A stretch of DNA of 64,000 nt, from the NCBI GenBank assembly GCA_028284905.1, contig JANQQU010000012.1, forward strand, positions 124,001-188,000. The letters are read 5' to 3'. The translations under genes were made by a program, and so were the position numbers. Positions 17,018 through 28,175 of the stretch are shown here, piece after piece (position 1 is the first letter of the stretch; each line of letters starts with the position of its first letter). The DNA comes from Calditrichia bacterium (GTDB taxonomy: Bacteria > Calditrichota > Calditrichia > RBG-13-44-9 > J075). Below the pieces are notes generated by a model that ran no database searches, had not been told where the DNA came from, and saw nothing but the letters and a program-made list of their open reading frames with translations.

Positions 17018-18523
17018 TTATGGATTTAAACCGGTATGGCAATCGGTGCAAAGTCCCTCACGCCAATCTTCATCACCATCCGGGTGCATGAATTCCAGGC
17101 CATTGCCGGTTTCCGCATAGGCCATTTCAGCAGGGGGCCCTTGGGCCGTGATCAAATGGCAAAGGTTACAATCCATGGAGATGGATTTACCACTTTCGCT
17201 AATATGCGTGTTGTTATGGCAGCGGAAACAACCGTTAAAATCTTTGTGGCCGATATGGTCCGGATAGGCATCCCAGCGCACCTTCATTTCCGGAAAAATA
17301 TTTTTCGAAAAAGCCTCCTGCATACCAAGAATTGCCTGAGCGACCAACTCTCTCTTCTCCTCATAAATTTCAGGATATTCTTCTTCGTAATAGTCGTTGA
17401 TGGTGCGGGCAATTTCCTGCATTGCAGAATCGTTGTTGGCAAATTCCTGATCACAGAGTTCTACGGCAATCATTTTGATTTCCGGCAACTCGACAGGAAT
17501 CGCCCCGGTGTTGATCGCTACGTTGACAAATTTCGCCGGGGTCTGATAGATATGCGAAGGGCGGTTATGACAGTCCATACAGTCCATCAGGCGTGTTTCC
17601 ATTATTGCCAGCGAATCAACGTCCACGTCGCTCTCTTCGTCCATGTAGATGGTCTCCTCACCGGTTTTCAGATTCGTGTATCGTACCCAGACGATCTCTT
17701 CCCGGGATTCATCACTGGGGATGTATTCAATTTTGACATCCGGATTGATATGCCAGTGAATCCCTTCTTTTAACCCATGATCAGAGTTTATCGCCCCGGT
17801 TTTCATCAGCAGCTGAATATCCCATTGAGTGTTTTCTTCATCGGAGAGATAGTGGCTTTGCTGATGAAGTTTTTGCGCATAGAACTGCGACGGCCAGTGA
17901 CAATTCTCGCAAGTTTCCCGGGCCGGTCGTAAATTAGCAATCGGCGTCGCAATTGGCCGGGGATACTTGTCCGCCAGGCTGGAATAGACCTGATATAGCC
18001 CGGATAGTTTCGAGCGCACATACCAGTCCGCGCCAGTACCGACATGACAATCCACACAGCTCACCCGGGCATGTGCGGAATTTTGATATGCTGTGAATTC
18101 CGGGTGCATAACTTTGTGACAGACCGTTCCGCAAAAAGTCACAGATTCGGTATAGTGAAATGCTTCATAGCTGCCAACCGCGGAGGCAAAAAGGAGAAAG
18201 GAAGTACCAACGGAAAAAACCATAAATGCATTCCGGTGCCGAACGATGTTTAAATCTACCCGAGGCCAGGCGGGTTGATCCGGATCGAGCGCCTTCTGGC
18301 GCCGTCTGGTTTCAATTAACATTCCGATGGGAATTAACAACAAGCCGAGAATCATTACCGCCGGCAGCAAAATATAAATTACCAGTCCCAAATAGGCATG
18401 CGTATCCCGCCAAAAGACCGAAATCGTAAAGAGAAATACAATCATTGAAAATGAGATAAACGCAATCATCGCACCGATAAGCGTTATCCAGTTTTGGGAA
18501 GAGCGGGGTAGCTTGAATTTCAT
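17018..18523 (-). CDS. Seven-heme NapC/NirT-type inner-membrane cytochrome (ImcH-like)
   Basis: This 501-residue protein has three N-terminal transmembrane helices (about 12-37, 45-70, 100-118) and a periplasmic heme domain. It has seven motifs: CGTVCH (CX3CH, about 131-136), CVDCH, CENCH, CMDCH, CFRCH, CNLCH and CTDCH. NapC/NirT proteins take electrons from quinol. Length, heme count and three helices match ImcH of Geobacter, an inner-membrane cytochrome needed for respiration of high-potential extracellular acceptors. I place the start at ATG 18523, with TCAGGAG 8 bases upstream. Longer in-frame starts at 18553 and 18556 overlap the stop of the preceding gene. Assignment to ImcH rests on architecture, not on alignment. 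Confidence 0.87.
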   Translation of the reverse strand: MKFKLPRSSQNWITLIGAMIAFISFSMIVFLFTISVFWRDTHAYLGLVIYILLPAVMILGLLLIPIGMLIETRRRQKALDPDQPAWPRVDLNIVRHRNAFMVFSVGTSFLLFASAVGSYEAFHYTESVTFCGTVCHKVMHPEFTAYQNSAHARVSCVDCHVGTGADWYVRSKLSGLYQVYSSLADKYPRPIATPIANLRPARETCENCHWPSQFYAQKLHQQSHYLSDEENTQWDIQLLMKTGAINSDHGLKEGIHWHINPDVKIEYIPSDESREEIVWVRYTNLKTGEETIYMDEESDVDVDSLAIMETRLMDCMDCHNRPSHIYQTPAKFVNVAINTGAIPVELPEIKMIAVELCDQEFANNDSAMQEIARTINDYYEEEYPEIYEEKRELVAQAILGMQEAFSKNIFPEMKVRWDAYPDHIGHKDFNGCFRCHNNTHISESGKSISMDCNLCHLITAQGPPAEMAYAETGNGLEFMHPDGDEDWREGLCTDCHTGLNP

Positions 18524-18552: not shown

Positions 18553-21003
18553 TCAATTAGGTGACTCTTTTTCAGGTGATTCTTTGGTATCTGGTTTTTC
18601 GGTTTCTGCTTGTTCTTTTTCTGCTTCTATTTGTTGAATTCTTTCCCATTCTAACGGATGCTCGTGTGCCATTTCTTCCGCGCTCACTTTTCCGGTTAAC
18701 CAGGTGAAATTCATCGGGTAAACGTCCGGGTTAAAAATGACGTAGTAGAAATGCCAGACGACAATGGCGAGAAAAGCCAGCCAGGCTTCGAAATAGTGGA
18801 TCGCTTCACAAACATCGACGAACAATTTCGAGAACCAGGCCATCGATTGATTTTCAAACCAAAGGGCAAACCCGGTAACGCCCATAATGACCGTTCCCCA
18901 AATCAATGCCCAGTATTCGATTTTTTCCACGTAGTTAAAGCGATCGAATTTCGGTTTTTCCTTACCGAAGCCTAAATTATGTTTCATTGCCATTATCATG
19001 TCCCGGGCGTCCTGAATCCTTGGAAGCATGTCCTTAAAGAACTGGCGGCCTCGTTTGGTCCAGAGCACGTAATACATGTGATAGAAAGTAACTGCTGTCA
19101 TCACTACTGCAGCGATTCTATGCAAAAGGCCTCGCAGTTCGAAGATGCCTTCTCCGCCCATTTTGCGAATGCTGATCACCCACCACGCTTCCGGAAATTT
19201 CAGCATAAACCCGGTGATCACCAGCGCGATAAAGCTACTGGCGAGGGCGATGTGCTGGACGCGTTCCCCGACGGTCATTCGTAAATGAGGTTTAAGGCTC
19301 TGCAGCGGTTTGGCTTTCGGCACCGGGCTAAAGCGTTCCTGATACTTTTCCCGGGTTTTACTAACCCAGTCAAGAATATTATGGATGGACATGCTGCCGA
19401 CGGTTGCGATGATCAAGACCAGGTAAATATTGGCAATCCAGTAGATAATGTCCTTTTCCCCGGATTCGGTGGAGATATGCACTTTACCAATAGTAAAATT
19501 CTCATTTGCACCCGGGTGACATTGTCCGCAGGTTTCCGCCAGGCGAGTTTGGTGAATCATCGAACGTTCGTCGCTGGAAGGCAGAATATCATGCACGCCA
19601 TGGCAGCTGGCGCAATTGGCTGCTTCTACGTCCCCAAAGCGCACTGCCAGACCATGATAGCTGTCGTTATAAGCGGCAAAACGATCTGAAGAAATGCCAT
19701 ATTTTTCCGTCAGCTTTACAGAATTATGGCAAGGGCCGCAGACCTGCTCAGCAACATTCTGCGGGGCAACCGGAGAGCTGGCAATTTCATGCTCGATAAT
19801 CCGGTGTTCACCATGGCAGTCGGTGCAGGTTGGTGAATCTTCAATACCCTTGGCGAGTGCAACGCCATGAATGCTTTCGTTAAAATCCACCATAACGCTA
19901 TCATGGCAGCTGCCGCAGGTTTGTGCAATGTTAAACTTGTTCACCGGCGAAGCAGGATCGGAAGCTTTCATATTCTGATGCGCGCCGTGGCAGTCGCTGC
20001 AAATGGCAGAATTTTCATTGCCTTCGAGATATAAGCGACCGTGCACACTGTTTTCGTAGCCGGCGATAAAACCGGGATCGTGCGTTGTTCGGTCAATAAC
20101 ATCAGGACTATCGAGGTGGCAGGAAAGACAAACATCGATTTCCCGCTGGCGACTCATATTCGAGCGGCTATCGTCGCTGGCATAAATCTGATGTTCGCCA
20201 TGGCAGTCGACGCAATTCGGTGCATTCTCGAAACCGGCCGCTAATGCTTTTCCATGCTCGGATGCCATAAATTCTTCTGTAACATCATCATGGCATTCAT
20301 TACAGGTGGCGACGATATTACTGTGATTCACCGGAGAGTTTTCCGCATCGACGGAAAGAATATCATGGCCCCCGTGGCAGTCGCTGCATTCAAGGTCTTC
20401 AGCATGAATACTTTCCGAGTATGATTGCACAAACGCCAGGGTCGATTCAGTGTGACTTTTTTCTGCATACTCCTGATCACCATGGCAGGAGAGGCAATTG
20501 GCAGAGCTGGCTGCTTCTGCGCGGTGCGGCGAATGACAGTCAAAGCATCCCGGCCCATCTTCTGCTGTAAAGTGGATGGACTTCTTGATCGCTGCGATTG
20601 CTTCTTCATGGCAGTCCTGGCAGACGGCAGCGAGGCGTGCCGAATTTACTGGTTGGTGAATCTCGGTGTGGCAGGTTACACAATTTAATTCCCGGCGATG
20701 CGCACTGGCGGAAAACGCATGGACACTTTCTTCATGGCAGGAACTGCAATCCACCGGGGTAATGATTTCCTTGTGAGGATCTTCTTCCGGATCAAAACCG
20801 GTATGGCAATCGACACAAGTATTTTCCCTGTGTGCAGATTTCCGAAAAGCGTCCGTAGCGACATGGAGAGAGATTTCCTTGCCATTCTTTTCCATGGTAA
20901 ATTCCGGGTCATCATGGCAATCGAGGCAATCTTCAATAGTTTGTCCCGGCAATCCTGCGCTCAGCAGGATGAATATGAGGATGATTAAATGGAATGACTT
21001 CAT
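18553..21003 (-). CDS. 17-heme cytochrome c fused to diheme cytochrome b membrane domain (CbcL-like)
   Basis: This 816-residue fusion has a signal peptide (1-20) and a periplasmic domain with 17 CxxCH motifs (from CLDCH at 26-30 to CGQCH at 492-496). The repeats have a DxPxCxDCHGxH pattern. A cytochrome b561/HydC-like membrane domain of five helices follows (about 520-540, 584-602, 626-646, 697-715, 735-757). Candidate b-heme ligands are H584, H628, H642, H736 and H751. A charged C-terminal tail ends it. The fusion resembles CbcL of Geobacter, which joins about 15 c-hemes to a b-type quinol oxidase and serves low-potential acceptors. It lies 2 bases after the sigma-54 activator gene and just before the ImcH-like gene, in one operon. 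Confidence 0.9.
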   Translation of the reverse strand: MKSFHLIILIFILLSAGLPGQTIEDCLDCHDDPEFTMEKNGKEISLHVATDAFRKSAHRENTCVDCHTGFDPEEDPHKEIITPVDCSSCHEESVHAFSASAHRRELNCVTCHTEIHQPVNSARLAAVCQDCHEEAIAAIKKSIHFTAEDGPGCFDCHSPHRAEAASSANCLSCHGDQEYAEKSHTESTLAFVQSYSESIHAEDLECSDCHGGHDILSVDAENSPVNHSNIVATCNECHDDVTEEFMASEHGKALAAGFENAPNCVDCHGEHQIYASDDSRSNMSRQREIDVCLSCHLDSPDVIDRTTHDPGFIAGYENSVHGRLYLEGNENSAICSDCHGAHQNMKASDPASPVNKFNIAQTCGSCHDSVMVDFNESIHGVALAKGIEDSPTCTDCHGEHRIIEHEIASSPVAPQNVAEQVCGPCHNSVKLTEKYGISSDRFAAYNDSYHGLAVRFGDVEAANCASCHGVHDILPSSDERSMIHQTRLAETCGQCHPGANENFTIGKVHISTESGEKDIIYWIANIYLVLIIATVGSMSIHNILDWVSKTREKYQERFSPVPKAKPLQSLKPHLRMTVGERVQHIALASSFIALVITGFMLKFPEAWWVISIRKMGGEGIFELRGLLHRIAAVVMTAVTFYHMYYVLWTKRGRQFFKDMLPRIQDARDMIMAMKHNLGFGKEKPKFDRFNYVEKIEYWALIWGTVIMGVTGFALWFENQSMAWFSKLFVDVCEAIHYFEAWLAFLAIVVWHFYYVIFNPDVYPMNFTWLTGKVSAEEMAHEHPLEWERIQQIEAEKEQAETEKPDTKESPEKESPN

Positions 21004-21005
21004 AG

Positions 21006-22037
21006 CTATTCGCCTGTATTCTTTCCGTTCGTATGATTCGCTCTCAGATTGAATTTGTTGATCAGTCGATGTATTGTTCGCCGGTCGATCTCGCAGATGT
21101 TTGCTGTCCGACTAATATTCCATTTATGTTTTTTCAGGTGATGGCGAAGGTATTCCTTTTCAAATTTTTCCAGGACCATTTCCTTCGCTTCTTTATAGGT
21201 TAGTTTATCCCATTTTTGGCGATTATTTTCGATGTGATATTTGGCGATGTTCATCGGCAAATCGGTATGGCAGATCGTCGGTGGGGTTGCCAGGTAATAG
21301 GTGCGCTCGATAACATTTCGCAATTCACGCACGTTGCCTGGCCACTCATAGTCTTGCAGAATTTGTAAAGCCTGGGCGCCGATGCCGTTAATTTGCCGGC
21401 AATACTTTGTTTCAAATTGCTTCAGAAAAAAATCGGCGAGCAGCGGAATATCCCGGCGCCTTTCCCTTAATGGTGGTACTCGCAGTTGAATAGTGTTAAT
21501 CCGGAAATACAAATCTTCTCGCAATTTTCCGTTCTGCAAAAAACTTTCAACATCCCGGTTTGTTGCGGTAACGATTCTGACATTTACCGGTATTTCCGCT
21601 TTGCCGCCAATTCGGCGAATTTTGTTTTCCTCTAGCATGCGCAAGAGTTTTACCTGCAAAGTTTGCGATAGCTCGCAAATTTCATCGAGGAATAGCGTAC
21701 CTCCACTCGCCAATTCCACCAATCCAGGCTTTGATTGAAAGGCTCCGGTAAAAGCGCCTTTCTCATATCCAAAAAGTTCACTTTCAAATAGAGAATCGGG
21801 CAATGCACCGCAATTTATCGGGACAAAGGAGTGATTGCGGCGTTCAGAGAAATCATGGATGCTCCGGGCTACTAATTCTTTACCAACACCGCTTTCGCCG
21901 AAGATAAAAACTGCTGCATCCCCGAAGGCCACCTTTTTGATGATCTCAAAAACTTTCCGGATAGCTTTGCTTTTGCCGATCATATTATGAAAGCTGGGAA
22001 ATGAAGCTATCGTATCCGTGTAGTTGGTCGCTTTCAT
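21006..22037 (-). CDS. Sigma-54-dependent activator lacking a receiver domain
   Basis: This 343-residue protein is the AAA+ plus DNA-binding part of an NtrC-type activator. Walker A GESGVGKE is at 47-54, the sigma-54 contact loop GAFTGA at 94-99, and Walker B GGTLFLDEI at 112-120. An arginine-finger region (LREDLYFRIN) and a C-terminal Fis-type helix-turn-helix (about 296-332; NISRTANICEIDRRTIHRLI) follow. Only about 18 residues precede the AAA+ domain, so there is no receiver, PAS or GAF input. AAGGAT precedes ATG 22037. It is the first gene of the leftward cytochrome operon. It faces a receiver-like gene across a region with a sigma-54 promoter, which it probably controls. Confidence 0.95.
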   Translation of the reverse strand: MKATNYTDTIASFPSFHNMIGKSKAIRKVFEIIKKVAFGDAAVFIFGESGVGKELVARSIHDFSERRNHSFVPINCGALPDSLFESELFGYEKGAFTGAFQSKPGLVELASGGTLFLDEICELSQTLQVKLLRMLEENKIRRIGGKAEIPVNVRIVTATNRDVESFLQNGKLREDLYFRINTIQLRVPPLRERRRDIPLLADFFLKQFETKYCRQINGIGAQALQILQDYEWPGNVRELRNVIERTYYLATPPTICHTDLPMNIAKYHIENNRQKWDKLTYKEAKEMVLEKFEKEYLRHHLKKHKWNISRTANICEIDRRTIHRLINKFNLRANHTNGKNTGE

Positions 22038-22528: not shown

Positions 22529-22544
22529 TGGCATAATTACTGCA
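22529..22544 (+). promoter_or_regulatory. Sigma-54 (-24/-12) promoter of the rightward cytochrome operon
   Basis: TGGCATAATTACTGCA matches the consensus TGGCAC-N5-TTGCA: GG at 22530-22531 and GC at 22542-22543, separated by exactly 10 bases. The expected start of transcription is near 22555, about 55 bases before the receiver-like gene. Confidence 0.75.
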
Positions 22545-22609: not shown

Positions 22610-23041
22610 ATGCAACAAGTCGAAATTAACAATCGCAGCATCAAAAGAAGAAACATGAAGGCTGATATTATGCGCACGATAATGGTTTTAACAGCAGAAC
22701 CTTCTCTTTTTATCAAGCGAAATCACCTGGAAGCGCAGGAAGAAACTATTGATATCCGTATTTATACCGATGTGCTGGATTTTATGGAAGCCTTCCTGCA
22801 GGCCCATCCACAATTGGTTATTCTCGATATTGATGTGTTCAATGGCCGCATTTCCCAAATGGTCAATATCCTGACTGCAATGGAGAAGCAACTAAAGTTA
22901 TTATTGCTGCTCCCCAAAGAAAAATTGAAAAGTATCTCCAGAAGAGTTGTCCTCAGTGATTTACCCTATCTGATCAAACCGGTGTTCCGGGAAAATATAT
23001 ATGAATATGCGACTTTAATGTTAAAAACTAGTCATAGATAG
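22610..23041 (+). CDS. Degenerate stand-alone receiver-domain protein
   Basis: This 143-residue protein looks like a response-regulator receiver without an output domain. Strand 3 LVILDID holds the candidate phospho-acceptor D73, and LIKPVF holds the conserved Lys (K123). The N-terminal acidic pair is missing (LTAEP, only E30), and the Thr/Ser switch after strand 4 is replaced (LLLLLPKE). It is therefore probably a pseudo-receiver or an atypically controlled one. AGAGG precedes ATG 22610. It is the first gene after the sigma-54 promoter, 26 bases ahead of the nonaheme lipoprotein. The divergent activator lacks exactly this kind of domain. Confidence 0.7.
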   Translation: MQQVEINNRSIKRRNMKADIMRTIMVLTAEPSLFIKRNHLEAQEETIDIRIYTDVLDFMEAFLQAHPQLVILDIDVFNGRISQMVNILTAMEKQLKLLLLLPKEKLKSISRRVVLSDLPYLIKPVFRENIYEYATLMLKTSHR

Positions 23042-23067: not shown

Positions 23068-24831
23068 ATGAGACAGTTACCATGTAAAAAGTTCGTTCAA
23101 GCTACGATTTTTGGTCTTTTTGCGATGCTGCTGTTGTTTAGTGCCTGCGAAAACGAAAAGACGGTGATTGAGACCGTCGTCGTTCGAGACACTGTAGAAA
23201 CAATTGTCAGCATTATCAGTGTGGATGAGGTTTATGCCGAACCGGATTCCATTAGCCAGGGTGGTTCGATTACGCTGGCTGCACAATTAACCCTGGGCCC
23301 GGAAGCCGGGAACATCACTCTGAAGTGGTTTGCCGAAGCGGGCACGCTCGATAAGGCTGAGGGCGATACGGTAATCTGGAAAGCACCGGACGATCCGGGT
23401 GCGTATATGATCTCGGTACATGCCACCGACGGGGATTACATCGGTATCGGCACACGACGGATTGGCGTTGGGATGTATGCCCCAACGGTGACGCCCTACT
23501 ATCTTGGTGATGTTAGTTGTATGAGTTGCCACCAGGATCAGCATAATAAGTGGGCGGAAACCGGACACGCCGAAGCTTGGGCTGGCTTGCAGGCAAGTGG
23601 TCATGTTCAGAGCTTCTGTATTCCCTGCCATTCGGTTGGTTATGAAGGGGAAATCGGCAACAGCGGCTACGACGAAGCCCCGATCGCGAAGTTTGAAAAC
23701 GTGCAGTGCGAAAACTGTCACGGTGCTGCTTCCGATCATATTGCCGGCGCTGCCCCGGATCCCACCAAGGTTCACGTTGGATACGAAGTTGAGCAGTGCG
23801 GTAAATGTCATGATGGCACTCATCATCCATTCCTGAGTGAATGGGAAAATTCACCGCATAATTTTGATCCGAACTTCTTCGCGGTTACCCGGGGAAGTTG
23901 TGCCGGCTGCCATGAAGGTGTTGCCTCGGCAATCCGCCTCTCCGGTAAATCCGCATCTCAGCCACTGGAGGTTTTTTATGGCAGTGGTACTGTTACTGAA
24001 CGGCCCGATACCAGCGTTTTTGCTTATGGCAATATCGGCTGTATTACCTGTCACGATCCGCATAATGACGAGAATCCCGGCCAAATCCGCACCGTTGCCG
24101 ACGTGCCGCTGGTAACTGCCAATGGCGCCTCTCCGGTAATCACCGAAGGTGGCGTTGGGAAACTCTGTATGCATTGCCACCACGCCCGCCGTGGTCCGGA
24201 TGATCAGGTTGTTAATGGATATGCCCACTTTGGCCCGCATGCCAATCCGCAGGCAGATATGATGCAGGGCGCCAGCGCTTATCATGGCGTGGCCGATGCA
24301 TCCTTCCCCTGGGCAGATCCTTCCCACCTGAGTGTGCAAAACAGCTGTAAAACCTGTCACATTCAAACAGCAGAATATGTGCCGGGTACCGGTGCAAAAA
24401 CCGGTCACACCTTCCTGCCTTCAGTGGAAGCATGTGTGAACTGCCATGGTCAGATTGCTGAATTTGGCGACATTATGGCCCTGGAAGACTTCGATGGTGA
24501 TGGTAGTGTTGAAGGCGTGATGCACGAAGTTGACGGGTTGATGGCAATTCTCGAAGCTGCATTGTTTGAATCCATCGTCAATCGCGGACAGGATACTACC
24601 GGATACAGCAATGACCTCGCGCATTTTCTCGGGGACGACTCGCTGACTGTTTTGATTGAACGGGAAGCCGGGTATAACTGGGTATTTGTCCATGACGACA
24701 AGAGCCATGGTATTCATAACCCGGATTATGCCGTGCAGTTGCTGCAGCAAAGCTTTCAGCACCTGACCGGTACACCGGTACCGAATGCCGCCATTATGGA
24801 TGGCACCCGAAAAGTTACCGCACAGTGGTGA
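23068..24831 (+). CDS. Nonaheme cytochrome c lipoprotein with N-terminal Ig-like domain
   Basis: This 587-residue protein has a lipoprotein signal (LLLFSAC, lipid-modified Cys near 27). A beta-sandwich Ig/PKD-like domain follows (about 45-135; ITLKWFAEAGTLDKAEGDTVIWKAPDDPGAYMISV). A heme domain carries nine CxxCH motifs: CMSCH, CIPCH, CENCH, CGKCH, CAGCH, CITCH, CMHCH, CKTCH and CVNCH. The last 130 residues lack hemes. A strong AGGAGG lies ahead of ATG 23068. It is probably an outer-membrane or surface cytochrome, since the Ig-like domain could hold the hemes away from the membrane. It directly precedes a beta-barrel gene, as in porin-cytochrome conduits. Confidence 0.9.
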   Translation: MRQLPCKKFVQATIFGLFAMLLLFSACENEKTVIETVVVRDTVETIVSIISVDEVYAEPDSISQGGSITLAAQLTLGPEAGNITLKWFAEAGTLDKAEGDTVIWKAPDDPGAYMISVHATDGDYIGIGTRRIGVGMYAPTVTPYYLGDVSCMSCHQDQHNKWAETGHAEAWAGLQASGHVQSFCIPCHSVGYEGEIGNSGYDEAPIAKFENVQCENCHGAASDHIAGAAPDPTKVHVGYEVEQCGKCHDGTHHPFLSEWENSPHNFDPNFFAVTRGSCAGCHEGVASAIRLSGKSASQPLEVFYGSGTVTERPDTSVFAYGNIGCITCHDPHNDENPGQIRTVADVPLVTANGASPVITEGGVGKLCMHCHHARRGPDDQVVNGYAHFGPHANPQADMMQGASAYHGVADASFPWADPSHLSVQNSCKTCHIQTAEYVPGTGAKTGHTFLPSVEACVNCHGQIAEFGDIMALEDFDGDGSVEGVMHEVDGLMAILEAALFESIVNRGQDTTGYSNDLAHFLGDDSLTVLIEREAGYNWVFVHDDKSHGIHNPDYAVQLLQQSFQHLTGTPVPNAAIMDGTRKVTAQW

Positions 24832-24913
24832 TAATATTTTTAATCCGCATGAAGCCCGGATATCCCGGGCTTCATACCGGTGAAACCATTCACCATAAAC
24901 GGAAAAAGATGCC

Positions 24914-26092
24914 ATGAAAAATCTTATTGTATTGACGATCCTCATACTTATCCTCGGAATGACTGAGCAACTACGCCCGCAGATTCATATTAGCGGAGCA
25001 ACCCAGTCATCAGCTTATTTCTTTGATACCCCAACCGTGGAGCAGGGTAATTTCTACCAGTCGCTACGTTTTCGATTGAGTTCGGAAGGCCTTCCCGGCA
25101 CTTACCTCGCCAGTTACGCCCGTTTGGCAAAAATCGGTGATGATAGCTGGGATGAGCAGGTCTACAACCTTTATCTCAACTGGCAGAATGCCAACCGTAA
25201 AGTGCAACTACGGGCCGGCCGGCAGTTTCTCTATGAGGGCGTTATTAACGGTACTGTTGATGGTGTAATGTTGGCAGTGAAACCCGCGAAGAAACTGACG
25301 CTGAAAGTGGTTGCCGGTTTGGAATCGCCCTTCGACCGGGATCTCAATTTAGTCGGTGGTGATAGCAGTGCCCTGGGAGGCTATCTCTCCTATCAACTAC
25401 CCTGGGACTCAAAAATAGACCTGAGCTATTTCAAGCGGGATCGGGAGAGCGGCACTGTCTGGCATTTGGTCGGTGCTTCTTTAACCGGAACTTACCGAGA
25501 TAACCTCTACTATCTCGCCCGCATCGATCAAAATCTGGAAACGGAAGAATTGCAGGGGATGCGCTACCGTTTAAGCTACTTCTACAAACACTGGTCCTTC
25601 TCCGGGGAATACAGCCAGCAACGGCCGCGTATTCTGGAAGATTCCTTTTTCCGGATTTTTCGGCAGCTGGCATATAAACAAACCCGGGCCGGGGTTACCT
25701 ATCAGCTCAATAATTATCGCTTCGGCGTGCAGTATGCCTTTACCGATTATGAGTTGGACCAGGGAAATCAGGTAACGGCTACCTTCGGGAATCAGTGGGG
25801 GATTGTCGGCGTGATCTTCCAGGAAGGGTATGGCGGCGAAAATCTCGGTGTTTATGGAGAGGCGCGTTATGATATTCTCCCGCAGCTGACCGTCCGCGCA
25901 TATAGCAGCTATTATCAGTATCAGCGTCAATCAATTCAGATTGATGAAGAGGCGATTGGCCTTTCCGGAGGATTGACCTGGCGGCCGCTGAAGGATTTGA
26001 TGTTGAGAGCGGAAATCCAGGAAAGTATTAACGAGTATTACGAAAACGATGTGAGAGGATTATTCAGGTTGCGTTACGCGTTTTCACTTTGA
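24914..26092 (+). CDS. Outer-membrane beta-barrel (porin-cytochrome conduit candidate)
   Basis: This 392-residue protein has a signal peptide (about 1-22). The rest is alternating amphipathic strands typical of an outer-membrane barrel (LRFRLSS, VQLRAGRQFLYEGV, GGYLSYQLPWDSKIDLSYFKR, RYRLSYFYKHWSFSGEY), ending in a C-terminal strand with Phe (LRLRYAFSL-like). It has no cysteine-heme motif and no TonB plug. It lies between a nonaheme lipoprotein and an 11-heme cytochrome, the gene order of porin-cytochrome complexes that move electrons across the outer membrane. It is not an obvious MtrB/PioB homologue, and the pore role is inferred from position and fold. Confidence 0.82.
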   Translation: MKNLIVLTILILILGMTEQLRPQIHISGATQSSAYFFDTPTVEQGNFYQSLRFRLSSEGLPGTYLASYARLAKIGDDSWDEQVYNLYLNWQNANRKVQLRAGRQFLYEGVINGTVDGVMLAVKPAKKLTLKVVAGLESPFDRDLNLVGGDSSALGGYLSYQLPWDSKIDLSYFKRDRESGTVWHLVGASLTGTYRDNLYYLARIDQNLETEELQGMRYRLSYFYKHWSFSGEYSQQRPRILEDSFFRIFRQLAYKQTRAGVTYQLNNYRFGVQYAFTDYELDQGNQVTATFGNQWGIVGVIFQEGYGGENLGVYGEARYDILPQLTVRAYSSYYQYQRQSIQIDEEAIGLSGGLTWRPLKDLMLRAEIQESINEYYENDVRGLFRLRYAFSL

Positions 26093-26126
26093 GACGACCT
26101 GATAGACCACTAGCTGGAGATTATCC

Positions 26127-27020
26127 ATGAAGAAAATATTAATTCTCTCGGTGCTGGTTTTTTCATTCGCATACTATCTGCAGCCACTGGCCAACAATGG
26201 TAAGGGTGAAAAACTGGATTATAATTTTTCCCATCAACTGCATGTTGTCGAAGAGGAACTGGAGTGTATCGACTGCCATGAAGGTGCGGAGATTAGCGTA
26301 AAGGGGACCGATGATCTGCTCCCGGCAATGAGTGTTTGTGTCGATTGCCATGAGGGAGATGAGATTAAGCTGGACAATCCGGAAGGACTGCCGCGCATCG
26401 ACCGCTATAACGAGAAGTTTTCGCACAAGCAACACGCTGATGCCGGTGAAGACTGTATGAGCTGTCATGCTGATGTGGTGCAAAAAGAGTTAGTTGATGC
26501 CTACACCTTACCAACAATGATGAGTTGTATGGATTGCCATGAAAATCGGGCGGTCACGGTTGAGTGTGCCAGTTGCCATCAACCGTTTGAGAATCTGCGA
26601 CCAATCAGCCATCGCGATGATTTTACCCATCACCACGGACAATTGGCGCGCAGCGATGCCCGGCAGATGTCTGCGGATATGTCCTGCGCAACTTGCCATA
26701 AAAATGATTTTTGCCAGGAATGTCACGAAGGGGATAATATCGCCCGGGTCGTCCATCCGCTCAATTATGAATTTACCCATGCGATCGAAGCACAGGGGAA
26801 AGAAAAAGACTGCGCAACCTGCCATACCGAACGGCAATTCTGTTTCGATTGCCACCGGGATAATCAGGTGCTCCCGCATAATCATACTGTCGGTTGGGTG
26901 AATAATTTCCCCAATGATGGCGGCAGACATAAAGTGGAAGCAATGAACGATCTGGAAGCTTGTTTATCCTGCCACGAGAACAATGCGCAGGAAATTTGTC
27001 AATCATGCCACGGGTTATAA
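26127..27020 (+). CDS. Periplasmic 11-heme cytochrome c
   Basis: This 297-residue protein has an N-terminal signal segment (about 1-22) without a lipobox. It has eleven CxxCH motifs: CIDCH, CVDCH, CMSCH, CMDCH, CASCH, CATCH, CQECH, CATCH, CFDCH, CLSCH and CQSCH. FSHQLHV, FSHKQHA and FTHAIEA segments supply candidate distal His ligands, as in cytochrome c7/c3-type domains. About 27 residues per heme means a densely packed wire. Between a barrel gene and a lipoprotein cytochrome, it is the natural periplasmic or pore-inserted electron carrier of the conduit. Confidence 0.9.
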   Translation: MKKILILSVLVFSFAYYLQPLANNGKGEKLDYNFSHQLHVVEEELECIDCHEGAEISVKGTDDLLPAMSVCVDCHEGDEIKLDNPEGLPRIDRYNEKFSHKQHADAGEDCMSCHADVVQKELVDAYTLPTMMSCMDCHENRAVTVECASCHQPFENLRPISHRDDFTHHHGQLARSDARQMSADMSCATCHKNDFCQECHEGDNIARVVHPLNYEFTHAIEAQGKEKDCATCHTERQFCFDCHRDNQVLPHNHTVGWVNNFPNDGGRHKVEAMNDLEACLSCHENNAQEICQSCHGL

Positions 27021-27036
27021 AAGAGGTGAAAGAGAC

Positions 27037-28083
27037 ATGCTACGGTTAAATACGAATTATATTCAGACGCTGTACAAAGCCTTTTGTAATCGTCACAACG
27101 GTCTGCTTGTCGTAGTAACGCTCGCACTGTTTTTCCTGAGCGGCTGTTTGGATGAGAAGCAACCGATGGGTGTTTCCACACACCCGGAAAACTGGTCGGT
27201 GGCCGGTAGTGCGGATTTTCACGGCACTGCAATATTGACAAAATCCTTTTCCCAGGAAAGCTGCCAAAGCTGTCATGGCGAAAGTTACGATGGCGGCAGC
27301 TCGAAGGTCTCCTGCTATAGCGCTGGCTGCCATGCTGTGTATCCGCATCCCGGTGGGTTTGCCGATGGCAGTTCGGAAAGCTTTCACAGCAAGTTTATTG
27401 CAGAAGAATTGAAATGGGATATCAATAGCTGCCAGAGTTGCCACGGTAGTGATTATGCCGGTGAAGGTACGCCGGAAAAGAACTGTTTATCCTGTCACTC
27501 CGCCCCGGATGGTCCGGAAAATTGTAGCTCTTGCCATGGCGATGCCAATAGTGCTGCACCACCAAAGGATCTCAGCGGTAACACCAGCACGAGTGTCGTA
27601 ACCGTTGGTGCCCATCAGGCACACTTGAATGGCAGCAAATGGAGTACTTTTCAAGCCGGAAACTGCTTTACCTGCCATAATCAAACACTGGTTTACAACA
27701 CCGCCGGACATATCGATGATTCGCCCCATAGCGAGGTGGTCTTCAACAATTTGGCATCATCTGTCGGAACGGATGCTACTACCTGGGAAAGAATGGATGC
27801 ATCCTGCAGTAATGTTTATTGCCATGGCGGATTCGAATTCAAGAAAGCGGATAGTGAGTATCCCTGGGCTTATACTGAGGACGCCATGCGGGGAAATAAT
27901 CCGCGGATGATCTGGAACGCCGTTGGTACTGGTCAGGCACTCTGCGGTAGCTGTCACGGTTTACCGCCACAGGGACATATCCCCGCTGCAACTTGCGAAG
28001 GTTGTCATAGCAGTGTCGTTGATGCGAATTTCAATATCATCAATAAGTATCTACACATTAACGGCAAGATCGATGTTTATTAA
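27037..28083 (+). CDS. Nonaheme lipoprotein with CxxxxCH and CxxCH motifs (Geobacter-type surface cytochrome)
   Basis: This 348-residue lipoprotein has lipobox FFLSGC (Cys near 37) and nine heme motifs. Seven are CxxCH (CQSCH, CQSCH, CLSCH, CSSCH, CFTCH, CGSCH, CEGCH) and two are CX4CH (CYSAGCH, CSNVYCH). The paired CX4CH/CX2CH pattern with a downstream CGSCHGLPPQGH is characteristic of the Geobacter CxxxxCH/CxxCH domain family (TIGR01904). Members include outer-surface cytochromes of the OmcX type. I start it at ATG 27037 after AGAGGTG; an in-frame ATG at 26983 lies inside the previous gene. It closes the rightward operon and is followed by a terminator. Confidence 0.9.
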   Translation: MLRLNTNYIQTLYKAFCNRHNGLLVVVTLALFFLSGCLDEKQPMGVSTHPENWSVAGSADFHGTAILTKSFSQESCQSCHGESYDGGSSKVSCYSAGCHAVYPHPGGFADGSSESFHSKFIAEELKWDINSCQSCHGSDYAGEGTPEKNCLSCHSAPDGPENCSSCHGDANSAAPPKDLSGNTSTSVVTVGAHQAHLNGSKWSTFQAGNCFTCHNQTLVYNTAGHIDDSPHSEVVFNNLASSVGTDATTWERMDASCSNVYCHGGFEFKKADSEYPWAYTEDAMRGNNPRMIWNAVGTGQALCGSCHGLPPQGHIPAATCEGCHSSVVDANFNIINKYLHINGKIDVY

Positions 28084-28136: not shown

Positions 28137-28175
28137 AGAAAAAGCCTCACTGGGATGCCAGTGGGGCTTTTATTT
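28137..28175. terminator. Bidirectional terminator between convergent genes
   Basis: AAAAAGCCTCACTGG and CCAGTGGGGCTTTTA pair around GATG with one mismatch. A-rich and T-rich flanks suit termination from both sides. It ends the rightward cytochrome operon and the leftward NHL-propeller gene. Confidence 0.8.

What the first reader, a model, noticed from the sequence alone, without database searches (positions are those of the whole stretch)
23068..28083. Candidate new-type outer-membrane electron conduit: two cytochrome lipoproteins, a barrel and an 11-heme carrier
Seen: gene order is 9-heme lipoprotein with an Ig-like domain, plug-free beta-barrel, 11-heme periplasmic cytochrome, and 9-heme CxxxxCH/CxxCH lipoprotein. 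Known: porin-cytochrome conduits combine a barrel with a pore cytochrome and a surface cytochrome. Inference: with 29 hemes and a barrel not obviously like MtrB, this could be a distinct conduit class.
Basis: partly seen in the sequence, partly recalled or inferred. Interest (0 to 1): 0.72.

Follow-up and report, generated by a model that had tools for sequence, protein, structure and literature searches.

The report
Geobacter-type electron conduit in Calditrichota
These genes most likely build a wire of heme proteins that passes through an outer-membrane barrel to carry electrons out of the cell; it is a real but ordinary new member of the porin-cytochrome conduits known from Geobacter, not a new class.

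Summary
23068-28083 encodes a 9-heme lipoprotein, a 392-aa plug-free barrel, an 11-heme periplasmic cytochrome and a 9-heme (7 CxxCH + 2 CxxxxCH) lipoprotein, on one strand, closed by a terminator-like hairpin. The inference of a distinct conduit class is not supported. The barrel matches no Pfam/NCBIfam family at cut-off, lacks an MtrB signature and is not ExtI. But its profile matches barrels that sit in an OrfR-OmbB-OmaB-OmcB arrangement in Desulfuromonadia genomes (hhalign 99.9%, E 8e-32, 351 columns; ExtI control 3.9%), and the 11-heme cytochrome matches their 8-heme OmaB-type partner (E 1e-22). The pair is adjacent in 73 of 80 barrel matches with room downstream, and co-diverges. The 22-strand model and 11 hemes fall inside published Pcc ranges (18-22 strands, 5-14 hemes). 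A Pcc porin was already reported in Caldithrix abyssi. ImcH-like and CbcL-like quinol oxidases and a sigma-54 activator lie next door. Mildly new: 11-12-heme partners are the rule in this phylum, and a homologue of the first surface cytochrome carries a type IX secretion tail instead of a lipid anchor. A separate cluster of 10-31-heme cytochromes with a larger barrel, also in this genome, deserves its own look.

The parts
22529..22544 (+). sigma-54-like -24/-12 site (TGGCATAATTACTGCA), 65 nt upstream of the first ORF of the unit
   Evidence: 9 of 12 consensus positions, weak alone (16 sites of score 9 and 2 of score 10 in the window on both strands); better sites (10-11 of 12) lie upstream of the corresponding operons in L029, L028, L034 and L048
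22610..23041 (+). small receiver-like protein (143 aa), probable first gene of the unit
   Evidence: Response_reg E 0.064, below cut-off; ORFs of 127-142 aa sit just upstream of the first cytochrome or barrel in L032, L034, L044, L045
23068..24831 (+). 9-heme surface lipoprotein cytochrome with N-terminal Ig/PKD-like region
   Evidence: orthologues in all 7 genomes of its family, 58-65% identical; homologue in L032 has a T9SS tail
24914..26092 (+). 22-strand plug-free barrel, Pcc (OmbB-type) porin
26127..27020 (+). 11-heme periplasmic cytochrome, OmaB-type partner with an extended N-terminal c7-like part
27037..28083 (+). 9-heme lipoprotein cytochrome (7 CxxCH + 2 CxxxxCH), probable surface cytochrome of the conduit
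   Evidence: TIGR01904 E 8e-14; conserved third gene of the core
28140..28171 (+). terminator-like hairpin at the end of the unit
   Evidence: 14 pairs, T-rich tail
21006..22037 (-). sigma-54-dependent activator without receiver domain
   Evidence: Sigma54_activat E 4e-67, HTH_8; orthologues beside the conduit in L028, L029, L032, L034, L044, L045, L048, L050
18553..21003 (-). CbcL-like quinol oxidase: 17 hemes plus C-terminal cytochrome b561-type domain
   Evidence: PF01292 E 6e-17 at residues 575-759
17018..18520 (-). ImcH-like NapC/NirT cytochrome: 6 CxxCH + 1 CxxxCH
   Evidence: PF03264 E 2e-9; the atypical CX3CH matches published ImcH features (PMC6295460)
16351..16944 (-). small tetraheme cytochrome, possible periplasmic carrier
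   Evidence: beside imcH in L028, L029, L034, L044, L045

Best explanation
A Calditrichota porin-cytochrome (Pcc) conduit of the Geobacter OmbB-OmaB kind. The 22-strand barrel is a sheath in the outer membrane. The 11-heme cytochrome is inserted in it from the periplasm and forms the heme wire through the membrane. The CxxxxCH lipoprotein, and probably also the 9-heme Ig-like lipoprotein, take electrons on the outer face and pass them to an extracellular acceptor (iron or manganese oxide, humics, or a partner cell). Electrons come from menaquinol through the ImcH-like and CbcL-like proteins encoded next door, perhaps by way of the tetraheme protein. Expression is probably driven by the neighbouring sigma-54 activator. 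Shown here: motifs, homology, linkage, co-divergence, predicted barrel strand count. Inferred: insertion of the cytochrome in the barrel, surface location, outward direction, acceptor, regulation.
For: Barrel profile vs OmbB-type barrels: hhalign 99.9%, E 8e-32, 351 columns; against ExtI the same barrel profile gives 3.9% and the OmbB-type profile 0.7%. Cytochrome vs 8-heme OmaB-type: 99.5%, E 1e-22. Barrel followed by this cytochrome in 73 of 80 matches with room downstream, over Calditrichota, many other phyla and Desulfuromonadia. Pairwise distances of barrel and cytochrome correlate: rho 0.66 over all, 0.76 within Calditrichota, 0.94 within Desulfuromonadia, 0 of 1000 permutations as high. 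22 strands, no plug; ideal-barrel CA diameter about 40 A against about 47 A for 26 strands. ImcH-like and CbcL-like genes adjacent. Homologue of the first cytochrome carries a T9SS tail, which points to the cell surface.
Against: No complex could be modelled. The 11-heme model is poor (pLDDT 59). The foldseek hits of the barrel are substrate porins of the OprD/Occ kind at TM about 0.45, so the fold alone does not mark it as a conduit. The OmbB and OmaB references are recognised by gene arrangement, not by named records. The surface lipoproteins were not shown to be homologous to OmcB. Neither expression nor physiology is known.
Confidence: 0.86

Rival explanations
1. A distinct, new conduit class. 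The barrel and the 11-heme wire evolved independently of Mtr and Pcc.
For: No Pfam or NCBIfam family covers the barrel; no MtrB; not ExtI; surface cytochromes of other types than 12-heme OmcB.
Against: Profile-profile homology of both core proteins to OmbB-type and OmaB-type proteins; published Pcc ranges of 18-22 strands and 5-14 hemes include it (PMC4245776); a Pcc-porin homologue with associated cytochromes was reported in Caldithrix abyssi (PMC6137239).
Confidence: 0.05
2. Same conduit, opposite direction: it takes electrons up from outside (Fe(II), a partner cell) and feeds the quinone pool.
For: CbcL/MtrH/MtoC-type proteins occur in both iron reducers and iron oxidizers (PMC6295460). Porin-cytochrome conduits are not intrinsically one-way.
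Against: ImcH has so far been implicated only in quinol oxidation (PMC6295460); an ImcH-like gene lies beside the conduit here and immediately upstream of the barrel in L044, L045 and L050.
Confidence: 0.15
3. The 11-heme protein is a soluble periplasmic carrier and the barrel is a diffusion porin for a small substrate or chelated metal; adjacency is operonic only.
For: Foldseek places the barrel nearest OprD/Occ substrate porins; weak NCBIfam match to an Opr porin (E 0.004). The N-terminal half of the cytochrome resembles c7-type nanowire and ActA-like proteins.
Against: Linkage and co-divergence across many phyla; 22 strands is wider than the 18 usual in Occ porins (general knowledge); known Pcc homologues are required for Fe(III) reduction in Geobacter (PMC4589669, PMC6148476).
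Confidence: 0.07

Closest known systems
Pcc conduit OmbB-OmaB-OmcB of Geobacter (Desulfuromonadia)
   Same: Homologous barrel (about 20% identity, E 8e-32), homologous periplasmic multiheme partner directly downstream, lipoprotein multiheme surface cytochrome in the operon, ImcH and CbcL as likely quinol oxidases.
   Different: 11 hemes instead of 8 in the periplasmic wire (extra N-terminal c7-like part); surface cytochrome of the CxxxxCH type and a second Ig-like 9-heme lipoprotein instead of 12-heme OmcB; sigma-54 activator instead of the TetR-type OrfR.
Pcc of Ignavibacterium album, Anaeromyxobacter and Kuenenia (PMC4245776)
   Same: Pcc porin with a larger 12-14-heme periplasmic cytochrome.
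   Different: Those of Anaeromyxobacter and Kuenenia lack a surface cytochrome gene; this cluster has two. Not compared by sequence here; unnamed 14-heme relatives (L099, L100, L050) may be of this kind.
MtrCAB / MtoAB / PioAB
   Same: Same working principle: barrel sheath, periplasmic heme wire, surface cytochrome.
   Different: Barrel unrelated by PF11854; 22 rather than 26-28 strands; cytochrome not of the DmsE/MtrA family (TIGR03508 17 bits against a cut-off of 192).
ExtHIJKL (ExtI) of Geobacter
   Same: Barrel beside cytochromes; a second Calditrichota subtype (L047-L049, L051) also carries a rhodanese-like protein upstream, as extH does.
   Different: ExtI-type barrels, identified beside ExtN and a rhodanese gene, do not align with this barrel.
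PCC3 of He et al. 2017 (PMC5566968)
   Same: Porin plus multiheme cytochromes.
   Different: PCC3 has 20-60-heme proteins and a 5-helix membrane protein; the finding does not. A different cluster in this genome resembles PCC3 more (see Noticed in passing).

Membership tests
Pcc (OmbB-OmaB-OmcB type) | Outer-membrane porin homologous to OmbB-type barrels | tested here: met
Pcc (OmbB-OmaB-OmcB type) | Periplasmic multiheme cytochrome homologous to OmaB, 5-14 hemes | tested here: met
   E 1e-22 over the C-terminal half; 11 hemes
Pcc (OmbB-OmaB-OmcB type) | Porin gene next to periplasmic cytochrome gene | tested here: met
Pcc (OmbB-OmaB-OmcB type) | 18-22 transmembrane strands | tested here: met
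   (22 strands in the model); range from PMC4245776
Pcc (OmbB-OmaB-OmcB type) | Surface lipoprotein multiheme cytochrome in the cluster | tested here: met
   lipoboxes in both flanking cytochromes; surface location inferred
Pcc (OmbB-OmaB-OmcB type) | Surface cytochrome homologous to OmcB | not tested
   not compared directly; PMC4245776 reports lack of sequence conservation among Pcc cytochromes, so this is not a defining feature
[quoted passage not shown]
   needs protein or a cultured relative
Mtr/Mto/Pio | MtrB_PioB barrel (PF11854) | tested here: not met
Mtr/Mto/Pio | DmsE/MtrA-family decaheme cytochrome | tested here: not met
   TIGR03508 at 17 bits, cut-off 192
ExtHIJKL | ExtI-type barrel | tested here: not met
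   probability 3.9%; control
ExtEFG / ExtABCD | ExtE or ExtB barrel | tested here: inconclusive
   barrels followed by a 5-heme gene (L159, L161, L162, L163) match the profile at E 1e-14 to 1e-22, but could not be named
OetABI | OetI barrel | not tested
   no OetI sequence at hand
ImcH (window 17018-18520) | N-terminal membrane helices, NapC/NirT-like part, CX3CH motif, 5-9 CX2CH | tested here: met
   features from PMC6295460; helices judged from sequence, not with a helix predictor
CbcL (window 18553-21003) | Multiheme N-terminus (3-23 motifs) and cytochrome-b C-terminus | tested here: met
   17 CxxCH and PF01292

The most novel reading that the evidence does not exclude
In part of the Calditrichota the Pcc conduit is capped by a surface multiheme cytochrome that crosses the outer membrane by the type IX secretion system instead of as a lipoprotein. 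The window's lipid-anchored 9-heme protein and the T9SS-tailed protein of L032 would be two delivery modes of one cap, so that heme-loaded cytochromes are T9SS cargo docking on an electron conduit.
Probability: 0.3. Interest if true: 0.5.

Novelty: new member of a known kind. Interest (0 to 1): 0.3.

Why it matters
It places a complete inner-membrane-to-surface electron route (ImcH-like, CbcL-like, Pcc, surface cytochromes) in a little-cultured phylum whose iron-reducing ability is, according to PMC6137239, not known and not explicitly tested. It shows that the Geobacter-type Pcc porin is a widely spread family for which no Pfam or NCBIfam model matched and no solved relative was found by sequence, so such clusters are easily mistaken for new classes. 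A family model built from these loci would prevent that.

Tried and rejected
MtrB/PioB and ExtI rejected as the barrel family. Single-sequence scan of genome contigs with the barrel found nothing; alignment A2 was too diverse for pattern search; the closer set A3 found only Calditrichota-type loci, a few of them labelled otherwise. PDB sequence search with the barrel profiles: no relative. Foldseek gives OprD/Occ porins, not informative for function. AlphaFold2 of the 11-heme protein failed (pLDDT 59) and was not used. A barrel-cytochrome complex could not be submitted. Literature on T9SS-secreted multiheme cytochromes: no paper held the terms together. Sigma-70 promoter scan not above chance.

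Full report
WHAT IS THERE. The four genes exist as described: 9 CxxCH, barrel, 11 CxxCH, and 7 CxxCH + 2 CxxxxCH. The first and last proteins have clear lipoboxes. Gaps between the genes are 16-82 nt, and a 14-bp terminator-like hairpin follows the last gene at 28140-28171. A receiver-like ORF (22610-23041) precedes them. On the opposite strand lie a sigma-54 activator without receiver domain, a 17-heme protein with a C-terminal cytochrome b561-type domain (CbcL-like), a NapC/NirT-type protein with 6 CxxCH and one CxxxCH (ImcH-like) and a tetraheme protein. The window lies in an 8.55-Mb genome of a phylum that, from record titles, is Calditrichota.

CONSERVATION. The barrel is found in 24 of 40 genomes of the phylum. 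In nearly every locus long enough to judge, the next genes are the 11-12-heme cytochrome and a CxxxxCH-type or related lipoprotein cytochrome. The first gene is less tied. It is present in all 7 genomes of the window's family and in 17 of 40 of the phylum, but is adjacent to the barrel only in the window genome, L028 and L029, and as a 33%-identical relative in L032. Elsewhere it is replaced by other multiheme genes or lies away from the barrel (for example about 20 kb away in G039). So the unit of conservation is a three-gene core, not the four-gene order.

BEYOND THE PHYLUM. Neighbourhoods were read for 70-odd loci. Of 80 barrel matches with room downstream, 73 have a relative of the 11-heme cytochrome within 450 nt on the same strand. 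Of the 7 exceptions, 3 are partial profile matches whose cytochrome is still about 1 kb on, and 4 have none. Barrel and cytochrome distances correlate: Spearman 0.66 overall, 0.76 in Calditrichota, 0.94 in Desulfuromonadia, 0 of 1000 permutations as high. Shared species history contributes to this. Heme numbers of the partner are mostly 11-12 in Calditrichota, 5-14 elsewhere (apart from one 33-heme neighbour in L118) and 8-10 (5 in four loci) in Desulfuromonadia.

IDENTITY OF THE FAMILY. In the Desulfuromonadia-like genomes the barrel sits in an arrangement known from the literature. In L154 a 198-aa TetR-like gene (judged from its N-terminal sequence) precedes barrel (403 aa), 8-heme (229 aa) and 12-heme (767 aa) genes; L153 has barrel, 8-heme and a 12-heme lipoprotein of 768 aa. 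In L146 and L147 two such sets stand in tandem. PMC4245776 and PMC6148476 describe orfR-ombB-omaB-omcB with a second adjacent copy. Contig lengths of 5,136,364, 4,304,501 and 4,615,150 agree, from memory, with G. uraniireducens, G. daltonii and G. bemidjiensis, the first two of which are reported to have adjacent pcc clusters and the third only one (PMC4245776); the loci agree. Profile-profile comparison: window family vs these OmbB-type barrels 99.9%, E 8e-32, 351 columns. The 11-heme family vs the 8-heme OmaB-type family: 99.5%, E 1e-22, over the C-terminal part. Control: barrels next to ExtN and a rhodanese gene, hence ExtI-type, give 3.9% and 0.7%. PF11854 is absent.

HOW IT LIKELY WORKS. 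The AlphaFold2 barrel has 22 strands, no plug and short loops (pLDDT 85). An ideal 22-strand barrel is about 40 A across between CA atoms, against about 47 A for 26 strands, so a slim cytochrome can fit. PMC4245776 gives 18-22 strands and 5-14 hemes for Pcc. The likely path is menaquinol, ImcH-like or CbcL-like protein, periplasmic carrier, 11-heme wire in the barrel, CxxxxCH lipoprotein and Ig-like lipoprotein, extracellular acceptor. Outward flow is favoured because ImcH has so far been implicated only in quinol oxidation (PMC6295460), and an imcH-like gene lies directly upstream of the barrel in L044, L045 and L050. A sigma-54-like site (9 of 12) stands 65 nt before the first ORF; sites of 10-11 of 12 stand upstream of the corresponding operons in L028, L029, L034 and L048, while the 64-kb window has only 2 of score 10. 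This is suggestive of control by the neighbouring activator.

SURFACE CYTOCHROME. The window's first protein and its orthologues in L028 and L029 are lipoproteins. The homologue in L032 (33% identical over 473 residues, 9 hemes) has an ordinary signal peptide and a type IX secretion tail (PF18962 E 1e-7). Other tailed cytochromes stand near the conduit in L034, L037, L044, L045 and, in another phylum, L099. As T9SS cargo is exported over the outer membrane, this supports a surface place for the first gene's product. No paper joining T9SS and multiheme cytochromes was found in the held library.

WHAT WAS KNOWN. [quoted passage not shown] PMC6295460 lists one CbcL-type and one ImcH-type homologue in Calditrichaeota. 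In the barrel tree the window belongs to a Calditrichota clade of 19 rows, separate from the rhodanese-associated subtype of the single-contig genome G001 (4,978,541 bases; probably C. abyssi, from length). Two genomes (G003, G007) carry both. So the window cluster is a new member, of a subtype not singled out before as far as the held papers show.

LIMITS. No complex model, no expression or physiology, reference proteins identified by context, and a quick tree with long branches.

Noticed in passing
L206 6270-10139 (own genome G000:C30); L188, L191, L194, L196, L198, L200, L034 12627-19254: A second, different barrel/cytochrome cluster in Calditrichota: one to three cytochromes of 10-31 hemes (typically 20 + 22 + 10), a 530-625-aa barrel only weakly like the Pcc barrel, and a membrane-anchored 4Fe-4S + FAD/NAD(P) oxidoreductase of 432-474 aa, in fixed order in 11 loci including the window's genome. 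PCC3-like heme numbers, but the inner-membrane partner differs; a better candidate for a new conduit type than the given finding.
   Followed up: partly
L032 5295-7916; L034 5947-7896; L037 707-2152; L044 1209-3140; L099 3142-5919: Multiheme cytochromes with a type IX secretion C-terminal sorting domain beside Pcc conduits, one of them a homologue of the window's lipid-anchored 9-heme protein.
   Followed up: partly
L047, L048, L049, L051, L052 (Calditrichota) and L096-L098 (other phyla): A second Pcc subtype with a 9+1-heme cytochrome and a lipoprotein (rhodanese-like in L048) upstream of the barrel, and a 12-heme (11 in L097 and L098) partner; it recalls the extH-extI order although the barrel is Pcc-type.
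   Followed up: partly
window 21006-22037; compare L032 8324-11159, L034 2451-5323, L044 3660-6547: Relatives have a sensor-like gene with one CxxCH motif and a full-length (about 457 aa) sigma-54 regulator beside the conduit; the window copy is only 343 aa, lacks a receiver domain, and has no such sensor next to it.
   Followed up: no
L056, L058: MAG records titled Deltaproteobacteria (PRO9) and Bacteroidota (CSMAG_3093) carry barrels 48% identical to the window's; L056 has the length and match position of contig G030:C524, placed in the window's own family, so the record title is probably wrong.
   Followed up: no
L106 7524-8777; L118 7337-12481: Pcc-like barrels without the usual cytochrome partner: L106 has none downstream, L118 has a 33-heme and a 12-heme gene instead.
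   Followed up: no
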